Source of the DNA: an uncultured Planctomycetaceae bacterium
GTDB taxonomy: Bacteria; Planctomycetota; Planctomycetia; Pirellulales; Pirellulaceae
Length of the DNA: 33,219 nt
Assembly: GCA_937862885.1 (NCBI GenBank)
Contig: CALMEE010000049.1
Location: 1-33,219, forward strand
Direction: 5' to 3'
In this document: positions 1 through 6,252 of the stretch, piece by piece
Layout: the number at the start of each line of letters is the position of its first letter
How positions within the stretch are numbered: the first letter of the stretch is position 1
Notes under the pieces: generated by a model
The model's input: only the letters and a program-made list of their open reading frames with translations
The model's database searches: none
Told to the model about the DNA's origin: nothing
Translations under genes and position numbers: made by a program

Positions 1-68
1 CCGATTTTGGCCCTTTTTTGGCCCCAAAACTCAAAATGCCCCCTTCAAGTCCCCTCCTACAAAATCTG

Positions 69-96
69 CCCCCCCACCCCCCCCCCCCCCCCCCCC
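69..96. repeat. Poly-C homopolymer tract (C7-A-C20)
   Basis: Seven C residues (69-75), one A (76) and twenty C residues (77-96) lie in a generally C-rich stretch (1-97), about 80 bp upstream of the first gene of the operon starting at 176. On the minus strand this would encode a glycine run, but no convincing protein uses it. A run this long is prone to replication slippage and to sequencing error, so its exact length should not be trusted. Confidence 0.85.
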
Positions 97-175
97 GCTA
101 AAATGCGAAGATGCAGGTAAATTGACCTGAGCTTCATGATTCTGAAAGGGTATACTGTGAACCGCACGCCAACTT

Positions 176-532
176 TTGTCGATCACTTCCACTGTTATCG
201 TTTTAATGGTGACTTCTGCGTCTGTTATGCCCCGTTCGATTGGGATTGAATTTAAATTCGGAGGCGAACCTTGTACCGGTCGCCTTGGTGAGTGGGATTG
301 CCCGTGGCCAATTTGGGAAAATGCTCCAGGCCGGTACACATGTAATACACACAAGTTTAGACAACCCTATACAGTCGCCTATCATTGGATCCATATACCC
401 GTCGAAAATGGGGAAAATTGTGCGGACCACAATTATTGGAAAGAAGGCGCCGGTTGGTTGCCCTGTGCAGCGCGCACTAAATACGATGATGGTAGCAATG
501 GAGATTGTGTCGAGGGTTGGCATATCTTTTAG
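176..532 (+). CDS. Small Cys-rich probably exported protein
   Basis: This is a 118-residue reading frame of unknown family. The N-terminus (about residues 1-18) is hydrophobic and Ser/Thr/Val-rich, like a short signal sequence. The rest is rich in Trp and has six cysteines at roughly 33, 42, 55, 82, 97 and 110, spaced as expected for three disulfides. A stop at 158-160 limits extension upstream. The start is unclear: TTG at 176 keeps the hydrophobic segment, ATG at 206 loses half of it, and neither has a good ribosome binding site. The frame ends 29 bp before the start of the next gene on the same strand, so it is probably the first gene of the run 176-4310. Its cysteines fit a thiol-redox context, since the downstream genes carry rhodanese and MauE-like domains. 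It could be chance, but its composition looks more protein-like than the overlapping frames. Confidence 0.5.
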   Translation: MSITSTVIVLMVTSASVMPRSIGIEFKFGGEPCTGRLGEWDCPWPIWENAPGRYTCNTHKFRQPYTVAYHWIHIPVENGENCADHNYWKEGAGWLPCAARTKYDDGSNGDCVEGWHIF

Positions 533-561
533 TCCTTGTGGCCTACTTGCGGGAGACATCC

Positions 562-1695
562 ATGAACCCAATCACTTATTTGTCGATATTGACATTTTAC
601 CTGTTTTTCCAAATCTCGATGCCTTTATCCGCTCAGACTAACCCAGATCTATCTACGCTACTCGAGTCCCTTGGTAAATATGAATCGTGCTTTAATGGTA
701 GACGAGTAGTTACCGACCACAAAAAAATCGTTTGGGGACACGAGCGTGAAGAAATATGGGTAAGCAAAGACGGCAATGTACAAGTCATCGAATGGGAAAA
801 TGTTGTCACGGCAAAAAGCAATGGCAAAAAGACGCGAGTGCTTGCCGGAATCTATAATACTCCGGTGTTTAGTTTCGATCTACGTGAAACGCGGTCCGAA
901 CGACGTGAAAACAGGCCGGTGATTTCAGCCACTGCGGTTCCAGAATATTATCCGGAGGAAATCGGGACGAGGCAACACGCTATTCTTTTTGGCTACAGCC
1001 AATACGATGCTATGCGATTTTCGCAAATTTGCAATTCCGATAACGCGCAGTTAAGCCTTGAAACTTTTGAAGTTGATGGCACCGCATTGATAGGGATTAC
1101 ATGCGAAGTTTCTGGATTGGGCAATTATCGTTTCGGTTTTGAACGGAATGGCAACGACTATCGACTCGTTTACTTTGAAGCCCAAAAGGGTAAAGGGGAT
1201 GTGGTAGGCCTCGAGACAATGCAGAAGGTATTCATGGGCTCCGGACGTCCTCGTGACAACAGCTTTGCGCTTAGTTCACACTATAAGTCGATTTGGTATC
1301 CGATCCGGTATGATGGCCATGGGTTTCCGCAGTATGCGACCTTTCGGCTTTATGAGTTCAGTCGAGATGTTTACAATGCGGATCAATTAACGTCGATGGA
1401 GGTTTTAGAACACGAACCGCATGATCGAGTTTTGGATCCGAATCGAATATCTTTTGTGCATCTGAAGCTACCGAATGAAATGGAAGTCCAACCGTACCGA
1501 TCTGGAATTCCGCTCAAACTAGTGAACGGAAGGCTCGTAACGGCGGTTGACGGCATTTCGCTGGATCAAATTCGAGGCGTTGGGTTCCGCGAACCGAGCT
1601 GGTCTGTTGGCTATCTTTACTATGTGGTGATTGCAACTTTATTATTGGCATTCGGGGGCTTGTTTTGGTATCTTCGCCGGCGACAAATGAGCTAA
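562..1695 (+). CDS. Hypothetical secreted protein with C-terminal membrane anchor
   Basis: I do not recognise the family. The start chosen is ATG 562, preceded by a GGGAGA-type ribosome site at 551-556 and giving 377 residues with a clear signal peptide (about 1-24, ending in LSAQ). The longer frame from 505 would place 19 residues before it. The body is a mixed, probably beta-rich extracytoplasmic domain. The last 30 residues form one membrane helix followed by Arg-Arg-Arg, as in C-terminally anchored envelope proteins. There is no PEP motif before the helix, so it is not a classic PEP-CTERM protein. Its 3' end overlaps the first possible start of the C39-like/rhodanese gene, which implies co-transcription and perhaps translational coupling. 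By context it may be an envelope partner or substrate in the same pathway; that is inference. Confidence 0.85.
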   Translation: MNPITYLSILTFYLFFQISMPLSAQTNPDLSTLLESLGKYESCFNGRRVVTDHKKIVWGHEREEIWVSKDGNVQVIEWENVVTAKSNGKKTRVLAGIYNTPVFSFDLRETRSERRENRPVISATAVPEYYPEEIGTRQHAILFGYSQYDAMRFSQICNSDNAQLSLETFEVDGTALIGITCEVSGLGNYRFGFERNGNDYRLVYFEAQKGKGDVVGLETMQKVFMGSGRPRDNSFALSSHYKSIWYPIRYDGHGFPQYATFRLYEFSRDVYNADQLTSMEVLEHEPHDRVLDPNRISFVHLKLPNEMEVQPYRSGIPLKLVNGRLVTAVDGISLDQIRGVGFREPSWSVGYLYYVVIATLLLAFGGLFWYLRRRQMS

Positions 1696-2795
1696 GAATT
1701 GCCTGGTTGATCGGGATGGCATTATGGAGTGCGCTTCCCGGCCAACTTATAGGGCAAGCCAGCTTGTCTTTTCATAGCGACTATGATCGGAATAGTTGGC
1801 AAGGCGGAACTTGTGGAATTTACGCGCTGGTCGCGGCAGCGAAGGCTCATGATGTAAACGTGAATATCAGCGACTTGCTCGTTCCAGAATTCTGTGATTC
1901 TTTTGTTTACGGAAGCAGTAGCTACCAACTTGAGCAGGCAGCAACGAGGTTGGGGTTGGTGCCAACTTCATATAAGAACCTCGACTGGACTTTTTTGAAA
2001 TCAAGCCGCAATCCGGTATTGCTTTTAGTTGAAGAAGATCTCTCGCCCTCGGGGCATTGGATTACGTTTTTAGGAATCGAAGACGGAAAGGCCTTGATTT
2101 TTGACCAAGCTCAAGAGGGAAGAGTTGTTCGAGTTCCACGTGGCGATCTATTGATAAACTGGCGGGGGATGGGTATTTCTATTAGGCGGATGGATGGTCC
2201 GACGGATACTTCTGCATTAATGGACGCCTGGGGCAAATATCTTGTGCTACTTTTGCCTTGCGTTATCGTCGGGGTGATTAGTACGAAGTTTGTTTCGTCG
2301 CAGCGCGGAATGACTGCCTCGTTCATAATATCTATTTCCATCATATTGGCCATGATTTGGATCTTCGATGAAACACACATCTTCCGCAACACGAATATTG
2401 CTGGGTGGATTTATGCGGATCGCCAACAGAGTTTAGAACAGGCACCCGTTGTTGTTTTCGATGAGTTTATGCAATGTTTGCAGGAGAACCGAGCTTACGT
2501 TATCGACACGCGACCGAAAGATGCCTACAAAGCTGCGCATGTCGATGGCTCTGTCAATCTTGCCATTGACGCACGACCATACGAATTTTTCGATGTCGTA
2601 AAAGACTGGGATCGTTCATCAAAATGTGTCGTCTTCTGCAACAGTAGAAAATGTCAATGGGCGAATACTGTCGCAAATCGCCTGATTGCGATTGGTTTTC
2701 GTGATGTGGTTATTTTTCGTGGTGGAATGCAAGTTCTGGCGACACAGGGTGTTCAGTTTGTAGACGATCGAGATAACGATGTTCGCAGCGAATGA
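1665..2795 (+). CDS. C39-like cysteine peptidase domain fused to rhodanese, membrane protein
   Basis: With numbering from TTG 1665, the protein has 376 residues and an N-terminal hydrophobic export segment (11-30). A C39-like papain-fold domain follows (about 40-180), with Cys50 in GGTCGIYAL, His131 in SGHWITFLG and Asp147 in IFDQ in the usual Cys-His-Asp order. Two membrane helices come next (about 192-208 and 218-234) with a short basic loop between them. A rhodanese domain ends the protein (about 262-366), with active loop CNSRKC at 325-330. C39 domains usually cut double-glycine leaders, although many C39-like proteins lack that partner. Rhodanese moves sulfane sulfur or handles persulfides. 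If the export segment is cleaved, the two helices put both domains outside the cytoplasm. The start is uncertain: TTG 1665 (overlapping the previous gene by 31 bp), TTG 1707 or ATG 1716. The next gene starts 18 bp downstream. Confidence 0.8.
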   Translation: MVSSPATNELRIAWLIGMALWSALPGQLIGQASLSFHSDYDRNSWQGGTCGIYALVAAAKAHDVNVNISDLLVPEFCDSFVYGSSSYQLEQAATRLGLVPTSYKNLDWTFLKSSRNPVLLLVEEDLSPSGHWITFLGIEDGKALIFDQAQEGRVVRVPRGDLLINWRGMGISIRRMDGPTDTSALMDAWGKYLVLLLPCVIVGVISTKFVSSQRGMTASFIISISIILAMIWIFDETHIFRNTNIAGWIYADRQQSLEQAPVVVFDEFMQCLQENRAYVIDTRPKDAYKAAHVDGSVNLAIDARPYEFFDVVKDWDRSSKCVVFCNSRKCQWANTVANRLIAIGFRDVVIFRGGMQVLATQGVQFVDDRDNDVRSE

Positions 2796-2813
2796 AATTT
2801 GCTGGAGGTCGCA

Positions 2814-4310
2814 ATGAAACGTAAGTTGATGGTGAACATAGTAGCGTTTACGCGGATTGCCATCGGTGCGGTCCTTATCGTAAGCGGTTCGTTTCATGCG
2901 AATTATGGCATTTTATTGCTTAAGTCGATTTTGGGTTACGATTTGGTCACATTGAGAACGGCGATTTTAGTTGCCGGTATCTTGCCGTTAATCGAGTTGC
3001 TCACCGGTGTGTGGCTAGTCTTGCGTATATTTCCAGTAGGCATGTCGGCCGTTGCAACCGGGCTCTTTTCAATTTTCACGATCGTTCAAAGTTCGGCTGT
3101 CTTGAGAGGGCTTAAGATCGATTGTGGTTGTTTTGGCCCTGTTGAGTCGACCGTGGGAATTAAGTCACTCGGCTTCGTAGTGACGCTTGCCGCAGCGAGT
3201 GGTTTGCTATGGTGCTATTTTGTTCGCAATTCTGAAACCAGCTCGAAATTGGATAGTTCGATCAAACATAAATCGCATTTGAAGGCTGGATTCACGTTGA
3301 TTGAACTGCTTGTGGCAATTGCCATTATTGGTCTCATGTTTGGATTGGTATTTCCGGCCGTTCAATCGATTCGTGAATCAGCTCGTCAGCTGGAATGCCG
3401 AAACCAACTGAGGCAACTTGTGCTGGCAGCTCAGACATTTGTGGCGACACATCAGAAGTTTCCGCCGGGTACATTGGGTTTTCGTTTGAATTTCGACATC
3501 CCAATGGATTTGACGATTAATGAATGGCACAACGATTCAAGCAGTGACTTCTATTGGAGGAAAACACAACACACTTCATCACTGGTATTTCTATTGCCCT
3601 ACTTGGAAAATCGGGTATTACAGGATTTGTTTCCAATTGAAGGGAGAAGCGTGGGAAAAATCCATCCTTGGCCTGGGGAGTTGAGTTCCGTTGTCGATAT
3701 GGCAAGGGAAGATATACCAGTGTTTCGTTGTCCATCCGATTCGTTTGACGAGACAAATATCGACATTTCCGTTGGCATTCAGCCCGTAACTCTGTGGCAA
3801 GAGGATTCTTTTTTCGGTGAAGGCTACCTTCCAGCCGTATTGAACAATAGTGATTTTCGGCCAACGAACTACATCGGATGCTCTGGAGCCCATTCTGGAG
3901 GAGTCTCGGCAGTGATCGAAATGAATCGTTACTCAGGCGTGTTTCGTTCACGTCAACAGACTCGATTGCAGCAAATTCGTGATGGGCTGAGCCATACAAT
4001 TATCTATGGAGAGACGATTGGCTTCATTGACAACTTTGAACGAAAACTTGCACAGTCATGGGTATTTGGTGCACTTGGCCGAGGACGCGGTGCCGCGCCT
4101 TGGGGCGAGGTATTCGATCCCGAAACGCAGGCATTTTTTCTGGGTGATTCAACCGCTTCGCATGTGGTCAGTTTTGGATCCAAGCACCCAATGGTGGTTA
4201 ACGTTGGTTTCGCCGATGGCTCAGTTCACGCGATCCATCGCAACATCCGATTGCGCACATGGTATGCACTCTGCGCAATGGCGGATGGTGAAGTTGATTT
4301 AGAATATTGA
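2814..4310 (+). CDS. MauE-like redox membrane domain fused to DUF1559 pseudopilin
   Basis: ATG 2814 has a strong GGAGG site at 2804-2808 and gives 498 residues. Residues 1-145 form a four-helix MauE/DoxX-like domain with the family motif DCGCFG at 103-108. MauE-type proteins are tied to disulfide or redox handling of exported proteins. A lysine-rich linker then leads to a type IV prepilin signature, KAGFTLIELLVAIAIIG, with the cleavable Gly159-Phe160 bond. A full DUF1559 domain follows, with RESAR near the helix end, FRCPSD, and the H-X9-DG motif (His458, Asp468-Gly469) near the C-terminus. DUF1559 proteins are very numerous in planctomycetes and normally begin at the prepilin leader. Here the leader is internal. 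Four helices would leave the linker cytosolic, so a prepilin peptidase could in principle release the pilin half. No ribosome site or stop separates the halves. Confidence 0.85.
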   Translation: MKRKLMVNIVAFTRIAIGAVLIVSGSFHANYGILLLKSILGYDLVTLRTAILVAGILPLIELLTGVWLVLRIFPVGMSAVATGLFSIFTIVQSSAVLRGLKIDCGCFGPVESTVGIKSLGFVVTLAAASGLLWCYFVRNSETSSKLDSSIKHKSHLKAGFTLIELLVAIAIIGLMFGLVFPAVQSIRESARQLECRNQLRQLVLAAQTFVATHQKFPPGTLGFRLNFDIPMDLTINEWHNDSSSDFYWRKTQHTSSLVFLLPYLENRVLQDLFPIEGRSVGKIHPWPGELSSVVDMAREDIPVFRCPSDSFDETNIDISVGIQPVTLWQEDSFFGEGYLPAVLNNSDFRPTNYIGCSGAHSGGVSAVIEMNRYSGVFRSRQQTRLQQIRDGLSHTIIYGETIGFIDNFERKLAQSWVFGALGRGRGAAPWGEVFDPETQAFFLGDSTASHVVSFGSKHPMVVNVGFADGSVHAIHRNIRLRTWYALCAMADGEVDLEY

Positions 4311-4842: not shown

Positions 4843-6252
4843 TTACATTTGAGCGCCGCGACGACGACGACGGGCCAACATGAATGTGGTCACAACGATA
4901 AACACGCTTCCGAATGATGGTTCCGGGATAACAAAAATACGGCTAGTCCACGCGAGACCGTAATCGCGACTCAGGTCGCCGTCCGCCAAAGAAACTCGCA
5001 AAGTATACTGACCTGGATTCAAAGCGGCAAACGTCAAAAATTCAACGTTTCCTCCAACTGCAACACTCGAATCGAGAAGATTCCAAAAAGGAGTATTCGT
5101 CTCAAAGAAATGAAGATCAAGATTCCCCAATTGCTCCACTGGAGCGAAAATCGCAGGATTTGGATTTGTATCCGTGATCAACATGTTCCAGGTTAATGCG
5201 ATTGTAAGATCTTGCCAAATTTCATTGTTGGGCACGATAAAATCGTAATAGACGGCGTCGTTCAATCCTGGATTAATTACCTCACGATAATCCCATCCAA
5301 TATTGGAAACAGCGGCGGCATGCGGCGTAGTCGAACCCTCTTGTTCTCCCGCATCGATAATGTGATAGCTGTTGTAAACATTGACTTGGCCAGCTCCAAA
5401 AACCGCATCCATGGGTTGTGTTGACGTGCGATTCCAACCGGGGAACAAATCGCGAGTTGCACCAGCCAGAATTACGGAACGCATGACGTCGATGCGATCT
5501 GCATTGGTACCAGCAGCCTTTTGATGCAACATCGCGGCAACCGACGAAACAATGGCTGTCGCCTGACTTGTGGTTCCCGCAGGAGCCACAATGTCCGGGC
5601 GGAATCGCGGAGGGCCATAAGCGGATGTCTGTCCCGATGCGTGATTACCGTCTGTCCGCCCTACGATAATCGAGTTGTACGTATGAGCGAGATATTGCGG
5701 TAACGGATTCGTACTGCCATTGTTGGTTCCACCAACGACGGTCATTTGATTTTGCAAGGCCACAAAATCCGAGCGTCGCGAAATATCTTCCAAGACCTCT
5801 ATCGGCGTTCCAGTCCCAATCCAGCTATTATTACTGACTCGGAACGGATGCGCTAATGGATCTGCTTGGCTGGCAAAGTTCAACTTCGTATTGATCCAAT
5901 CATTGGCGTCAAAAACCGTAATGTTCGTGACGCCAGGAGCGACGCTTTGGGTATTACCAAAAAACGAAATAGCCATCGAGGTCGCGTGTCCACTTGGGGT
6001 ATTGTTGGGTCCACTGCCATTTGTAATCGTCTTGCCTGTGAACTCCGAATGAGCTGTATCGGGCATATAGTTCCCGCCAACGGGTGCCTCAGTAAGCAAA
6101 ACTGAAATACCGGTTCCATCCTCAAGGCCTGGACCAACTTCATTGAATAGTTGAGTCCAACCGATTGCGGTTTTCCATGCCTGAGCATTGGCCTCGACCG
6201 CACCCAACAAGAAACAAAGCAACAATAATGATCTGATCGAACGCCGCAGCAT
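4843..6252 (-). CDS. Subtilase-like (S8) exported protein with PEP-CTERM
   Basis: The protein has 469 residues from ATG 6252, with an AGGA site 11 bases upstream. A signal peptide covers 1-23 (RR near the start, ANA before the cut). The fold resembles peptidase S8: His89 in SGHATSMA, Asn141/142 of the oxyanion region in VSNNSW, and Ser229 in GTTSQATA followed by a helix typical of the serine motif. The usual Asp motif is degenerate. The equivalent stretch is ISVLLTEA (49-56), with Leu at the aligned Asp position and Glu55 nearby. A beta-sandwich-like region follows (about 320-440). The C-terminus has VIPEP, a membrane helix and a run of five arginines, the PEP-CTERM sorting signal handled by exosortase. 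It stands alone on the minus strand. It may be an altered protease or an inactive relative; the family assignment is fairly sure, activity is not. Confidence 0.8.
   Translation of the reverse strand: MLRRSIRSLLLLCFLLGAVEANAQAWKTAIGWTQLFNEVGPGLEDGTGISVLLTEAPVGGNYMPDTAHSEFTGKTITNGSGPNNTPSGHATSMAISFFGNTQSVAPGVTNITVFDANDWINTKLNFASQADPLAHPFRVSNNSWIGTGTPIEVLEDISRRSDFVALQNQMTVVGGTNNGSTNPLPQYLAHTYNSIIVGRTDGNHASGQTSAYGPPRFRPDIVAPAGTTSQATAIVSSVAAMLHQKAAGTNADRIDVMRSVILAGATRDLFPGWNRTSTQPMDAVFGAGQVNVYNSYHIIDAGEQEGSTTPHAAAVSNIGWDYREVINPGLNDAVYYDFIVPNNEIWQDLTIALTWNMLITDTNPNPAIFAPVEQLGNLDLHFFETNTPFWNLLDSSVAVGGNVEFLTFAALNPGQYTLRVSLADGDLSRDYGLAWTSRIFVIPEPSFGSVFIVVTTFMLARRRRRGAQM

What the first reader, a model, noticed from the sequence alone, without database searches (positions are those of the whole stretch)
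176..4310. Four-gene run linking a Cys-rich peptide, C39-like peptidase, rhodanese, MauE and a pseudopilin
Spacings are 29 bp, a possible 31-bp overlap and 18 bp, all on one strand, so these genes are very likely one operon. The encoded parts are a small six-Cys probably exported protein, a C-anchored secreted protein, a C39-like peptidase joined to a rhodanese, and a MauE-type membrane domain joined to a DUF1559 pseudopilin. MauE-type and rhodanese domains both handle thiols or sulfur, and C39 domains cut exported peptides. Together they suggest an extracytoplasmic pathway that oxidises, persulfidates or trims a Cys-rich product and involves pilin-like assembly. I do not know a described system with this composition; the functional reading is inference.
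Basis: partly seen in the sequence, partly recalled or inferred. Interest (0 to 1): 0.82.

Follow-up and report, generated by a model that had tools for sequence, protein, structure and literature searches.

The report
Outward-facing factory for cysteine-rich peptides
Bacteria of the planctomycete group carry a repeated set of neighbouring genes for a small cysteine-rich protein, which is predicted to be exported, cut at a double glycine outside the cell membrane and cross-linked there by its neighbours; it varies so strongly between genomes that it is likely a weapon or signal, and no paper listed by our searches was seen to describe this combination.

Summary
The four genes (peptide; anchored protein; C39-rhodanese; MauE-DUF1559 pilin) lie tightly on one strand, and the set recurs: five C39-rhodanese copies in the window's genome, matches in 33 of 397 class genomes, own included. 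Of 57 loci with C39, 51 encode C39-rhodanese; MauE is adjacent in 49 of 51, the anchored protein upstream or fused in 43 of 48 testable, a Cys-rich peptide with GG/GA/GS present in 40 of 51. New: GG precedes the first core cysteine in 28 of 41 peptides (shuffle means 7.5 and, stricter, 13.2; maxima 16 and 23). That is the cleavage signal of C39 double-glycine peptidases, whose catalytic residues are kept. Cores share little but cysteines, keep a common spacing, and 46 of 49 have an even number. Best reading: Sec export, GG trimming by an outward-facing C39 domain, oxidation by a CX4C rhodanese with MauE, and a LolA-like partner. The mechanism is inferred; the product's role (bacteriocin-like) is the weakest step. 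Persulfidation is unsupported; the pilin is optional.

The parts
176..532 (+). Cys-rich precursor peptide, 118 aa, 6 Cys; hydrophobic N-terminal stretch, then GG, then the six-cysteine core
   Evidence: ORF; hydrophobic stretch and GG two residues before the first Cys; no Pfam, NCBIfam or PADLOC match. Start codon uncertain.
260..265 (+). Gly-Gly, predicted C39 cleavage site (residues 29-30 of the 118-aa reading)
   Evidence: sequence; motif enrichment over 41 peptides; cleavage itself inferred
266..529 (+). predicted mature core, 88 residues, Cys spacing 2-8-13-25-14-13-7
   Evidence: alignment A5, whose invariant columns are all cysteines
562..1695 (+). Secreted-looking, C-terminally membrane-anchored protein with a predicted LolA/LolB/RseB-like domain; last helix at about 1606-1689
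1665..2795 (+). C39-like double-glycine peptidase domain, two transmembrane helices, rhodanese domain
   Evidence: Pfam; PDB profile hits; topology. Catalytic Cys at 1812-1814, His at 2055-2057, Asp at 2103-2105; start may be 1707 or 1716
2463..2732 (+). Rhodanese domain; CX4C pair at 2637-2639 and 2652-2654
   Evidence: Pfam; both Cys in 24 of 24 aligned proteins
2814..4310 (+). MauE (4 TM expected, CGC at 3123-3131) fused to a DUF1559 pseudopilin; prepilin-type site between 3290 and 3291
   Evidence: Pfam; first Cys of CGC in 51 of 51 MauE proteins, second in 49 of 51

Best explanation
This operon most likely makes a small exported cysteine-rich peptide together with the membrane-bound tools that are predicted to trim it at a double glycine and to cross-link its cysteines outside the cytoplasm. 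Steps. (1) The precursor has an N-terminal hydrophobic signal (shown by hydropathy; Sec export inferred). (2) A C39 domain with the Cys-His-Asp triad of double-glycine peptidases (shown by sequence), facing outward on a two-helix protein (inferred from charge bias), would cut after the GG, GA or GS that precedes the core (motif shown, cutting inferred). (3) The rhodanese on the same protein, with an invariant CX4C pair, would pass disulfides to the cysteines of the core and be re-oxidised by the CGC pair of MauE, much as MauE is thought to serve methylamine dehydrogenase (inferred). (4) The LolA-like anchored protein, less conserved than the enzymes and at one locus duplicated together with peptides, would be the peptide's own partner: holder, receptor or immunity protein (inferred). 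(5) A pseudopilin, in a minority of loci, may help release (weak). The product, with variable cores on a common cysteine frame, is most likely a bacteriocin-like weapon; a signal is second.
For: Own genome: five C39-rhodanese copies, each with the anchored protein and MauE beside it. Of 57 loci with C39, 51 have C39-rhodanese: MauE within 300 bp in 49 of 51, anchored protein upstream or fused in 43 of 48 testable, peptide with GG/GA/GS in 40 of 51. Fusions: anchored-C39-rhodanese in L046 and L112 by my profile, and in L045 by size and position only; MauE-DUF1559 in 8 loci. GG between signal and first Cys: 28 of 41 peptides, GG/GA/GS 36 of 41. Control by shuffling mature residues: 7.5 (max 16 in 5000) and 15.8 (max 27); stricter control, shuffling within the stretch: GG 13.2 (max 23). 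C39-only profile: the 12 best of 16 PDB sequences are double-glycine peptidase domains, best 3.8e-11. Among 24 aligned proteins: catalytic Cys in 23 of 23 that reach that far, His 24 of 24, Asp 22 of 24, rhodanese CX4C 24 of 24. K+R in the TM1-TM2 loops 76, against 42 before and 25 after, over similar total lengths, 24 proteins. Even Cys count in 46 of 49 cores, shared spacing. Leader identity is at least that of the core in 11 of 11 precursor pairs, strongly in L044 (38 of 40 against 7 of 26) and L091/L092. In L091/L092 pS is 0.70-0.85 in cores against dS 0.24-0.26 in the enzymes. Losses: L052, L054 and L055 lack both rhodanese and MauE; L097/L098 (one genome) lack the C39 cysteine (by eye), the peptide and the anchored gene.
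Against: No expression, cleavage or disulfide data exist here. The window's own peptide has a TTG start, no positively charged signal start and a contig end close upstream. Of the five copies in its genome only two (this one and C118) show an uninterrupted signal-GG-Cys frame: C97 has an in-frame stop between signal and GG, C102 has no signal in frame, C101 shows no peptide before its contig ends. Four loci with enough sequence (L051, L093, L097, L098) show no such peptide. L054's Cys-rich peptide and one L044 peptide (PG) lack the motif. The stretch before the first Cys is itself rich in Gly, as the stricter shuffle shows. In three of the 11 precursor pairs leader and core differ by at most five points (L011/L016, L106/L107, L013/L014). 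MauE lacks the second Cys in L045 and L112. Three of 49 cores have odd counts; the sites were chosen by hand. The leader consensus of PCAT substrates was not tested beyond GG. Rhodanese as a disulfide catalyst is an assumption. dN/dS in the one core pair where it can be computed is 0.10, so selection for point changes is not shown. L052 may be a disrupted copy. No antimicrobial activity is known.
Confidence: 0.6

Rival explanations
1. Signalling system: the trimmed peptide is a pheromone and the LolA-like anchored protein is its membrane receptor; variation marks kin groups.
For: Peptide and anchored protein are neighbours and the anchored protein is less conserved than C39-rhodanese in six of six pairs; RseB, a sensor, is among the fold matches.
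Against: In the window the anchored protein ends about eight residues after its hydrophobic helix, leaving almost no cytoplasmic part; no kinase or regulator was noticed as a constant neighbour (not searched systematically).
Confidence: 0.17
2. Surface-building system: the peptide is a disulfide-hardened subunit or tip displayed or pushed out with the DUF1559 pseudopilin.
For: DUF1559 follows within 1.6 kb in 18 of 45 testable loci (background 3 of 90 large distant ORFs, a per-ORF figure), and is fused to MauE in 8 of 51; L044 has two further peptide-anchored pairs followed by DUF1559.
Against: 27 of 45 loci lack it; structural subunits are not expected to vary this freely.
Confidence: 0.13
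3. The C39 domain does not cut at GG: it binds or inspects the peptide, or cuts elsewhere, and GG is a flexible linker before the first cysteine.
For: Distance from GG to the first Cys varies from 1 to 18 residues; the stretch is Gly-rich; some peptides have GA, GS or no motif.
Against: GA and GS are, as recalled, also used by C39 enzymes; the triad is kept, and where its Cys is lost (L097/L098) no peptide was found.
Confidence: 0.09
4. Sulfur-transfer pathway: rhodanese and MauE persulfidate the peptide.
For: Rhodanese domains are known sulfurtransferases (general knowledge); catalytic Cys kept.
Against: A second invariant Cys sits in the rhodanese loop; cysteines are even in 46 of 49 cores. 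Sulfur donor enzymes were not searched for.
Confidence: 0.04

Closest known systems
C39 double-glycine processing by peptidase-containing ABC transporters (ComA, PCAT1; class II bacteriocin export)
   Same: C39 fold with Cys-His-Asp; the 12 best PDB hits are of this type; small precursors with GG/GA before the core. PMC6959990 (passages seen) explains GG specificity by a narrow cleft.
   Different: No ABC transporter domain on the window's protein; substrates carry a Sec-like signal; C39 predicted outside the cytoplasm, whereas the PCAT1 peptidase domain is cytosolic (same passages).
Pediocin PA-1 / bactofencin A operons
   Same: Peptide, dedicated second protein, ABC transporter with processing role and a thiol accessory protein in one operon (PMC5465099, passages seen; C39 in that transporter is recalled).
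   Different: There: an ABC transporter and a thioredoxin-type accessory. Here: Sec-like signal, LolA-like protein, rhodanese plus MauE, cores of 57-103 residues with mostly 6-12 Cys.
MauE-associated candidate RiPP families of Streptomyces (decRiPPter)
   Same: mauE homologues next to candidate precursors with at least 8 cysteines; proposed modification of the precursor (PMC7794033, passages seen).
   Different: Actinobacterial; the passages seen name no C39, rhodanese or LolA-like partner; candidates only.
MauE/MauD maturation of methylamine dehydrogenase
   Same: MauE Pfam domain; speculated role in disulfide formation of a subunit (as stated in PMC7794033).
   Different: No MauD-like protein among the six window proteins scanned; a rhodanese is there instead; different substrate.
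LolA/LolB/RseB superfamily
   Different: About 8% identity, no LolA-type Pfam match, C-terminal membrane anchor, peptide operon.

Membership tests
Peptidase-containing ABC transporter (PCAT) system | C39 peptidase domain with Cys-His-Asp triad | tested here: met
   Pfam 8e-6; PDB profile 3.8e-11, triad aligned; Cys 23 of 23, His 24 of 24, Asp 22 of 24 (Asn in L018, L019)
Peptidase-containing ABC transporter (PCAT) system | ABC transporter domains on the same protein | tested here: not met
   Window protein: only C39, two helices and rhodanese. Separate transporter genes elsewhere in the genome were not searched
Peptidase-containing ABC transporter (PCAT) system | Substrate with a double-glycine site before the core | tested here: met
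   28 of 41 GG, 36 of 41 GG/GA/GS
Peptidase-containing ABC transporter (PCAT) system | Peptidase domain in the cytoplasm | tested here: not met
   Predicted outward: positive TM1-TM2 loop, 24 proteins; prediction only
Peptidase-containing ABC transporter (PCAT) system | Leader helix with hydrophobic residues at -4, -7, -12 | not tested
   Only the GG position was tested
Rhodanese superfamily | Rhodanese fold with catalytic Cys | tested here: met
   Pfam 4e-12; Cys 24 of 24
Rhodanese superfamily | Sulfurtransferase activity | not testable with these tools
   needs enzyme assay
MauE / methylamine dehydrogenase maturation | MauE membrane domain | tested here: met
   Pfam 2e-15
MauE / methylamine dehydrogenase maturation | mau cluster neighbours such as MauD | tested here: not met
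   None among the six window proteins scanned; other loci were scanned only with my own five profiles, which include no MauD
LolA/LolB/RseB superfamily | Half-barrel fold | tested here: met
LolA/LolB/RseB superfamily | Sequence match to a LolA family model | tested here: not met
   No such Pfam match in any of 16 members at E up to 0.1
Class II bacteriocin operon | Antimicrobial activity and an immunity gene | not testable with these tools
   The LolA-like partner is only a candidate
Type IV / type II pseudopilin | Prepilin-type N-terminal motif | tested here: met
   N_methyl 2e-6, TIGR02532 above cut-off

The most novel reading that the evidence does not exclude
A separate bacterial route to disulfide-rich secreted peptides: Sec-exported precursors with exchangeable, venom-like cysteine-framework cores, cut outside the membrane by a tethered double-glycine peptidase and oxidised by a rhodanese-MauE relay in place of Dsb proteins, with a co-diversifying LolA-like partner for each peptide.
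Probability: 0.45. Interest if true: 0.88.

Novelty: new variant of a known kind. Interest (0 to 1): 0.8.

Why it matters
C39 double-glycine cleavage is described as a cytosolic, transporter-coupled step (PMC6959990, passages); here it would work outside the membrane on Sec-exported substrates. A rhodanese serving disulfide formation would be a new job for a common fold. The loci hold dozens of peptides with little in common but one cysteine frame, a possible source of stable peptides. The model is directly testable, because enzymes, substrates and predicted cut sites are all in hand.

Tried and rejected
Chance co-location: rejected. Defence system: no PADLOC match for the four proteins. RNA element in the window: none at Rfam gathering scores. 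Promoter- and terminator-like sites: 9 and 4 found, shuffles 6.7 and 5.3, so they do not settle operon limits. Fold of the peptide: AF2 gave pLDDT 39.1, unusable. Positive selection in cores: not supported; synonymous sites are near or at saturation, which suggests replaced cores rather than point change. That argument rests on one species pair (L091/L092) and one precursor pair in L044; in L091/L092 the spacer beyond the second peptide, where L092 has a third peptide gene, is also poorly conserved. The protein-database search returned only three relatives, without names. Verrucomicrobial L020 matches the C39 part only (1e-4) and was left out. L122, which lacks rhodanese and MauE, looks like an internal deletion and was not used as a natural case. 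The family search (13 of 100 at 1e-10, own genome included) contains rhodanese-only and C39-only matches. The phylum and class searches scored only the four best candidates per genome, so copy numbers there are lower bounds. Ten 'no c39 orf' lines came from my overlap filter or a missing hit; one search recovered all but L123.

Counts and dropped rows. 58 loci were annotated; L123 has no C39 hit, leaving 57. L123 and L125 are two contigs of one genome. Left out: L020, L053 (rhodanese only), duplicates L099, L100, L102, L103, and four rhodanese-only hits that were not fetched as wider regions. Anchored proteins were found by my own profile, except L045, counted as fused by size; in L010, L091 and L092 the anchored gene lies downstream and counts as missing. 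One search dropped L008 and L051 (spurious frames) and kept L007, L009 and L047, which show no signal; its automatic signal end missed the GG of L017 and L109, the GA of L019 and the GS of L122; in L106 and L125 the GG counted is not the site I prefer (GA). One search used 49 of 54 peptides, with hand-chosen sites; left out were L007, L008, L044b, L051, L054. In one search, L047 and L009 were added to the peptide-positive set by hand. Of the 11 loci without a peptide, six are cut by contig ends or nearly so (L008, L012, L049, L096, L101, L105), one has a stop (L007) and four show none. One search used wrong coordinates for one of ten peptides (the L108 item), so nine count.

Odds: after checking against the calls I lowered the main confidence from 0.62 to 0.60 and the novel case from 0.48 to 0.45, and raised the 'no GG cutting' rival from 0.08 to 0.09, because leader and core differ little in three of 11 pairs and the stricter GG control is closer than the first.

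Literature: ten searches; listings were capped (at most 15 shown of up to 298) and judged by titles and starts of abstracts. Passages were read in PMC7494827, PMC3482391, PMC7794033, PMC6959990 and PMC5465099; the other papers were seen only in listings. No listed paper was seen to describe this combination; 'rhodanese' with 'C39 family' gave 0 papers. The library lacks most subscription journals. That GA and GS sites are accepted by C39 enzymes is recalled.
Full report
What is there. The window is a whole contig of an unnamed assembly. From base 176 four genes run on the + strand: a 118-residue Cys-rich protein, a secreted-looking protein with a C-terminal helix, a C39-rhodanese protein with two central helices, and MauE fused to a DUF1559 pseudopilin. 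Pfam and NCBIfam support the domain names for genes 3 and 4 and give nothing firm for genes 1 and 2. Ten of 11 named relatives of gene 3 are Planctomycetota metagenome-assembled genomes; the eleventh is a verrucomicrobial C39-only match. So the window is most likely planctomycetal (inference).

It is a recurring cassette. The same genome holds four more C39-rhodanese copies, each with the anchored protein before and MauE after. Gene 3 relatives occur in 13 of 100 genomes of the family (1e-10, some matches partial), 8 of 392 of the phylum (1e-25) and 33 of 397 of the class (1e-25; 21 of 186 genera); each tally includes the window's own genome. I annotated 58 loci, of which 57 have a C39 hit and 51 a C39-rhodanese protein. 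MauE lies within 300 bp downstream in 49 of 51; of the other two, L010 has it further on and L050 ends after 1 kb. The anchored protein (own profile) is upstream or fused in 43 of 48 testable. A Cys-rich peptide with GG/GA/GS is present in 40 of 51. DUF1559 follows within 1.6 kb in 18 of 45 testable; among large ORFs more than 4.5 kb away, 3 of 90 are DUF1559. Gene fusions tie the parts together: anchored to C39-rhodanese in L046 and L112 (and, by size only, L045), MauE to DUF1559 in 8 loci. The order varies: in L010, L091, L092, L111 and L118 the peptide genes lie downstream.

The peptides. Most share a hydrophobic start and then a GG, GA or GS before the first core cysteine. GG occurs in this stretch in 28 of 41 peptides. 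Shuffling the mature residues gives 7.5 on average and never above 16 in 5000 trials; shuffling only within the stretch, which is Gly-rich, gives 13.2 and never above 23; equal-length stretches after the first cysteine would give 4.7. Outside the operon the same criteria found such a motif in three opposite-strand ORFs (L010, L011, L101) and in one MauE protein (L011), besides a further real peptide in L044. After the motif, 46 of 49 peptides have an even number of cysteines (6, 8, 10 or 12). The 27 six-cysteine forms keep one spacing: C, 7-12, C, 2-14, C, 22-30, C, 4-14, C, 8-16, C. In 10 of 14 eight-cysteine forms the extra pair falls into the long third loop (my reading). In the alignment of 27 cores all invariant columns are cysteines. 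No Pfam model matches nine peptides scanned; in NCBIfam ten were scanned, with no match near a cut-off.

Leaders and cores. Two precursors in L044 have leaders identical at 38 of 40 positions but unrelated cores (7 of 26 aligned). Between L091 and L092 the enzymes are 92% and 95% identical and the leaders 86-87%, but the cores 58% and 70%. Over all 11 precursor pairs compared, leader identity is at least that of the core, but in three pairs (L011/L016, L106/L107, L013/L014) the difference is about five points or less. In L091/L092, pS is 0.70-0.85 in cores against dS 0.15-0.25 in leaders and 0.24-0.26 in C39-rhodanese and MauE. DNA identity is 52-77% over the cores against 84-99% over the enzymes; the spacer beyond the second peptide (42-54%) and parts of the anchored gene are also divergent. 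Non-synonymous change is not in excess, so this looks like replaced cores rather than selection on point changes. The anchored protein is less conserved than C39-rhodanese in all six pairs compared (77 v 92, 42 v 65, 62 v 84, 69 v 70, 43 v 66, 38 v 59%), though in L018/L125 the difference is slight. L044 carries two further peptide plus anchored-protein pairs without their own enzymes. This pairing suggests a partner made for its peptide.

Losses agree with the model. L052, L054 and L055 lack both rhodanese and MauE while keeping C39 and a Cys-rich peptide; L054's peptide has no GG, and L052 may be disrupted. In L097 and L098, two near-identical copies in one genome, the C39 cysteine is gone (by eye), and no peptide or anchored gene was found, while rhodanese and MauE remain. 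This suggests a cutting half and an oxidising half.

Mechanism. I infer Sec export, membrane-near cutting at GG, disulfide formation by the rhodanese re-oxidised by MauE, and custody by the LolA-like protein. Each functional step is untested. The closest known operons are those of pediocin-type bacteriocins, where a processing transporter and a thiol accessory protein serve one peptide (PMC5465099, passages). The closest hint in print is the MauE-linked Cys-rich precursor candidates of Streptomyces (PMC7794033, passages). Neither has, in what I read, the outward C39, the rhodanese or the LolA-like partner. It works like a double-glycine system but is not a member of the PCAT class, because the transporter domain is absent and the cytosolic location is, by prediction, not met. 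Weapon is my first guess for the product, signal the second, surface part the third.

Limits. The window's own peptide gene has an uncertain start, and three of its four paralogous loci have a broken, signal-less or missing peptide frame. Four other loci show none. Hydropathy stood in for a signal-peptide predictor. No expression evidence was available.

Noticed in passing
window 4843-6252, - strand: Subtilase-like gene with an N-terminal signal and a C-terminal helix, converging on the operon; only a weak match to a cyanobactin protease model (0.049). Whether it recurs beside other copies was not searched.
   Followed up: no
window 1-100: C-rich run at the contig end; the assembly breaks here, so the true upstream context of gene 1 is unknown.
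   Followed up: no
L007 9280-10000, - strand: Peptide gene of the C97 paralogue: signal-like stretch, then a stop, then FGG and a cysteine-rich core in the same frame; a dead copy or a sequence error.
   Followed up: partly
L045 6397-6957 and L112 6958-7542: MauE with CGW or CGS in place of CGC, both in loci where the region before C39 is fused on as a long N-terminal part.
   Followed up: partly
L097 and L098 (one genome): Two near-identical copies with a C39 domain lacking its cysteine, preceded by a large 800-826 aa protein; perhaps a repurposed form of the enzyme pair.
   Followed up: no
L009 10316-11182, - strand: Secreted-looking 288-aa protein with 36 cysteines a few kb from the C102 copy.
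   Followed up: no
L011 12675-13043, - strand, and the opposite strand of L101: Small exported-looking protein with 22-23 cysteines in two related genomes, outside the operon.
   Followed up: no
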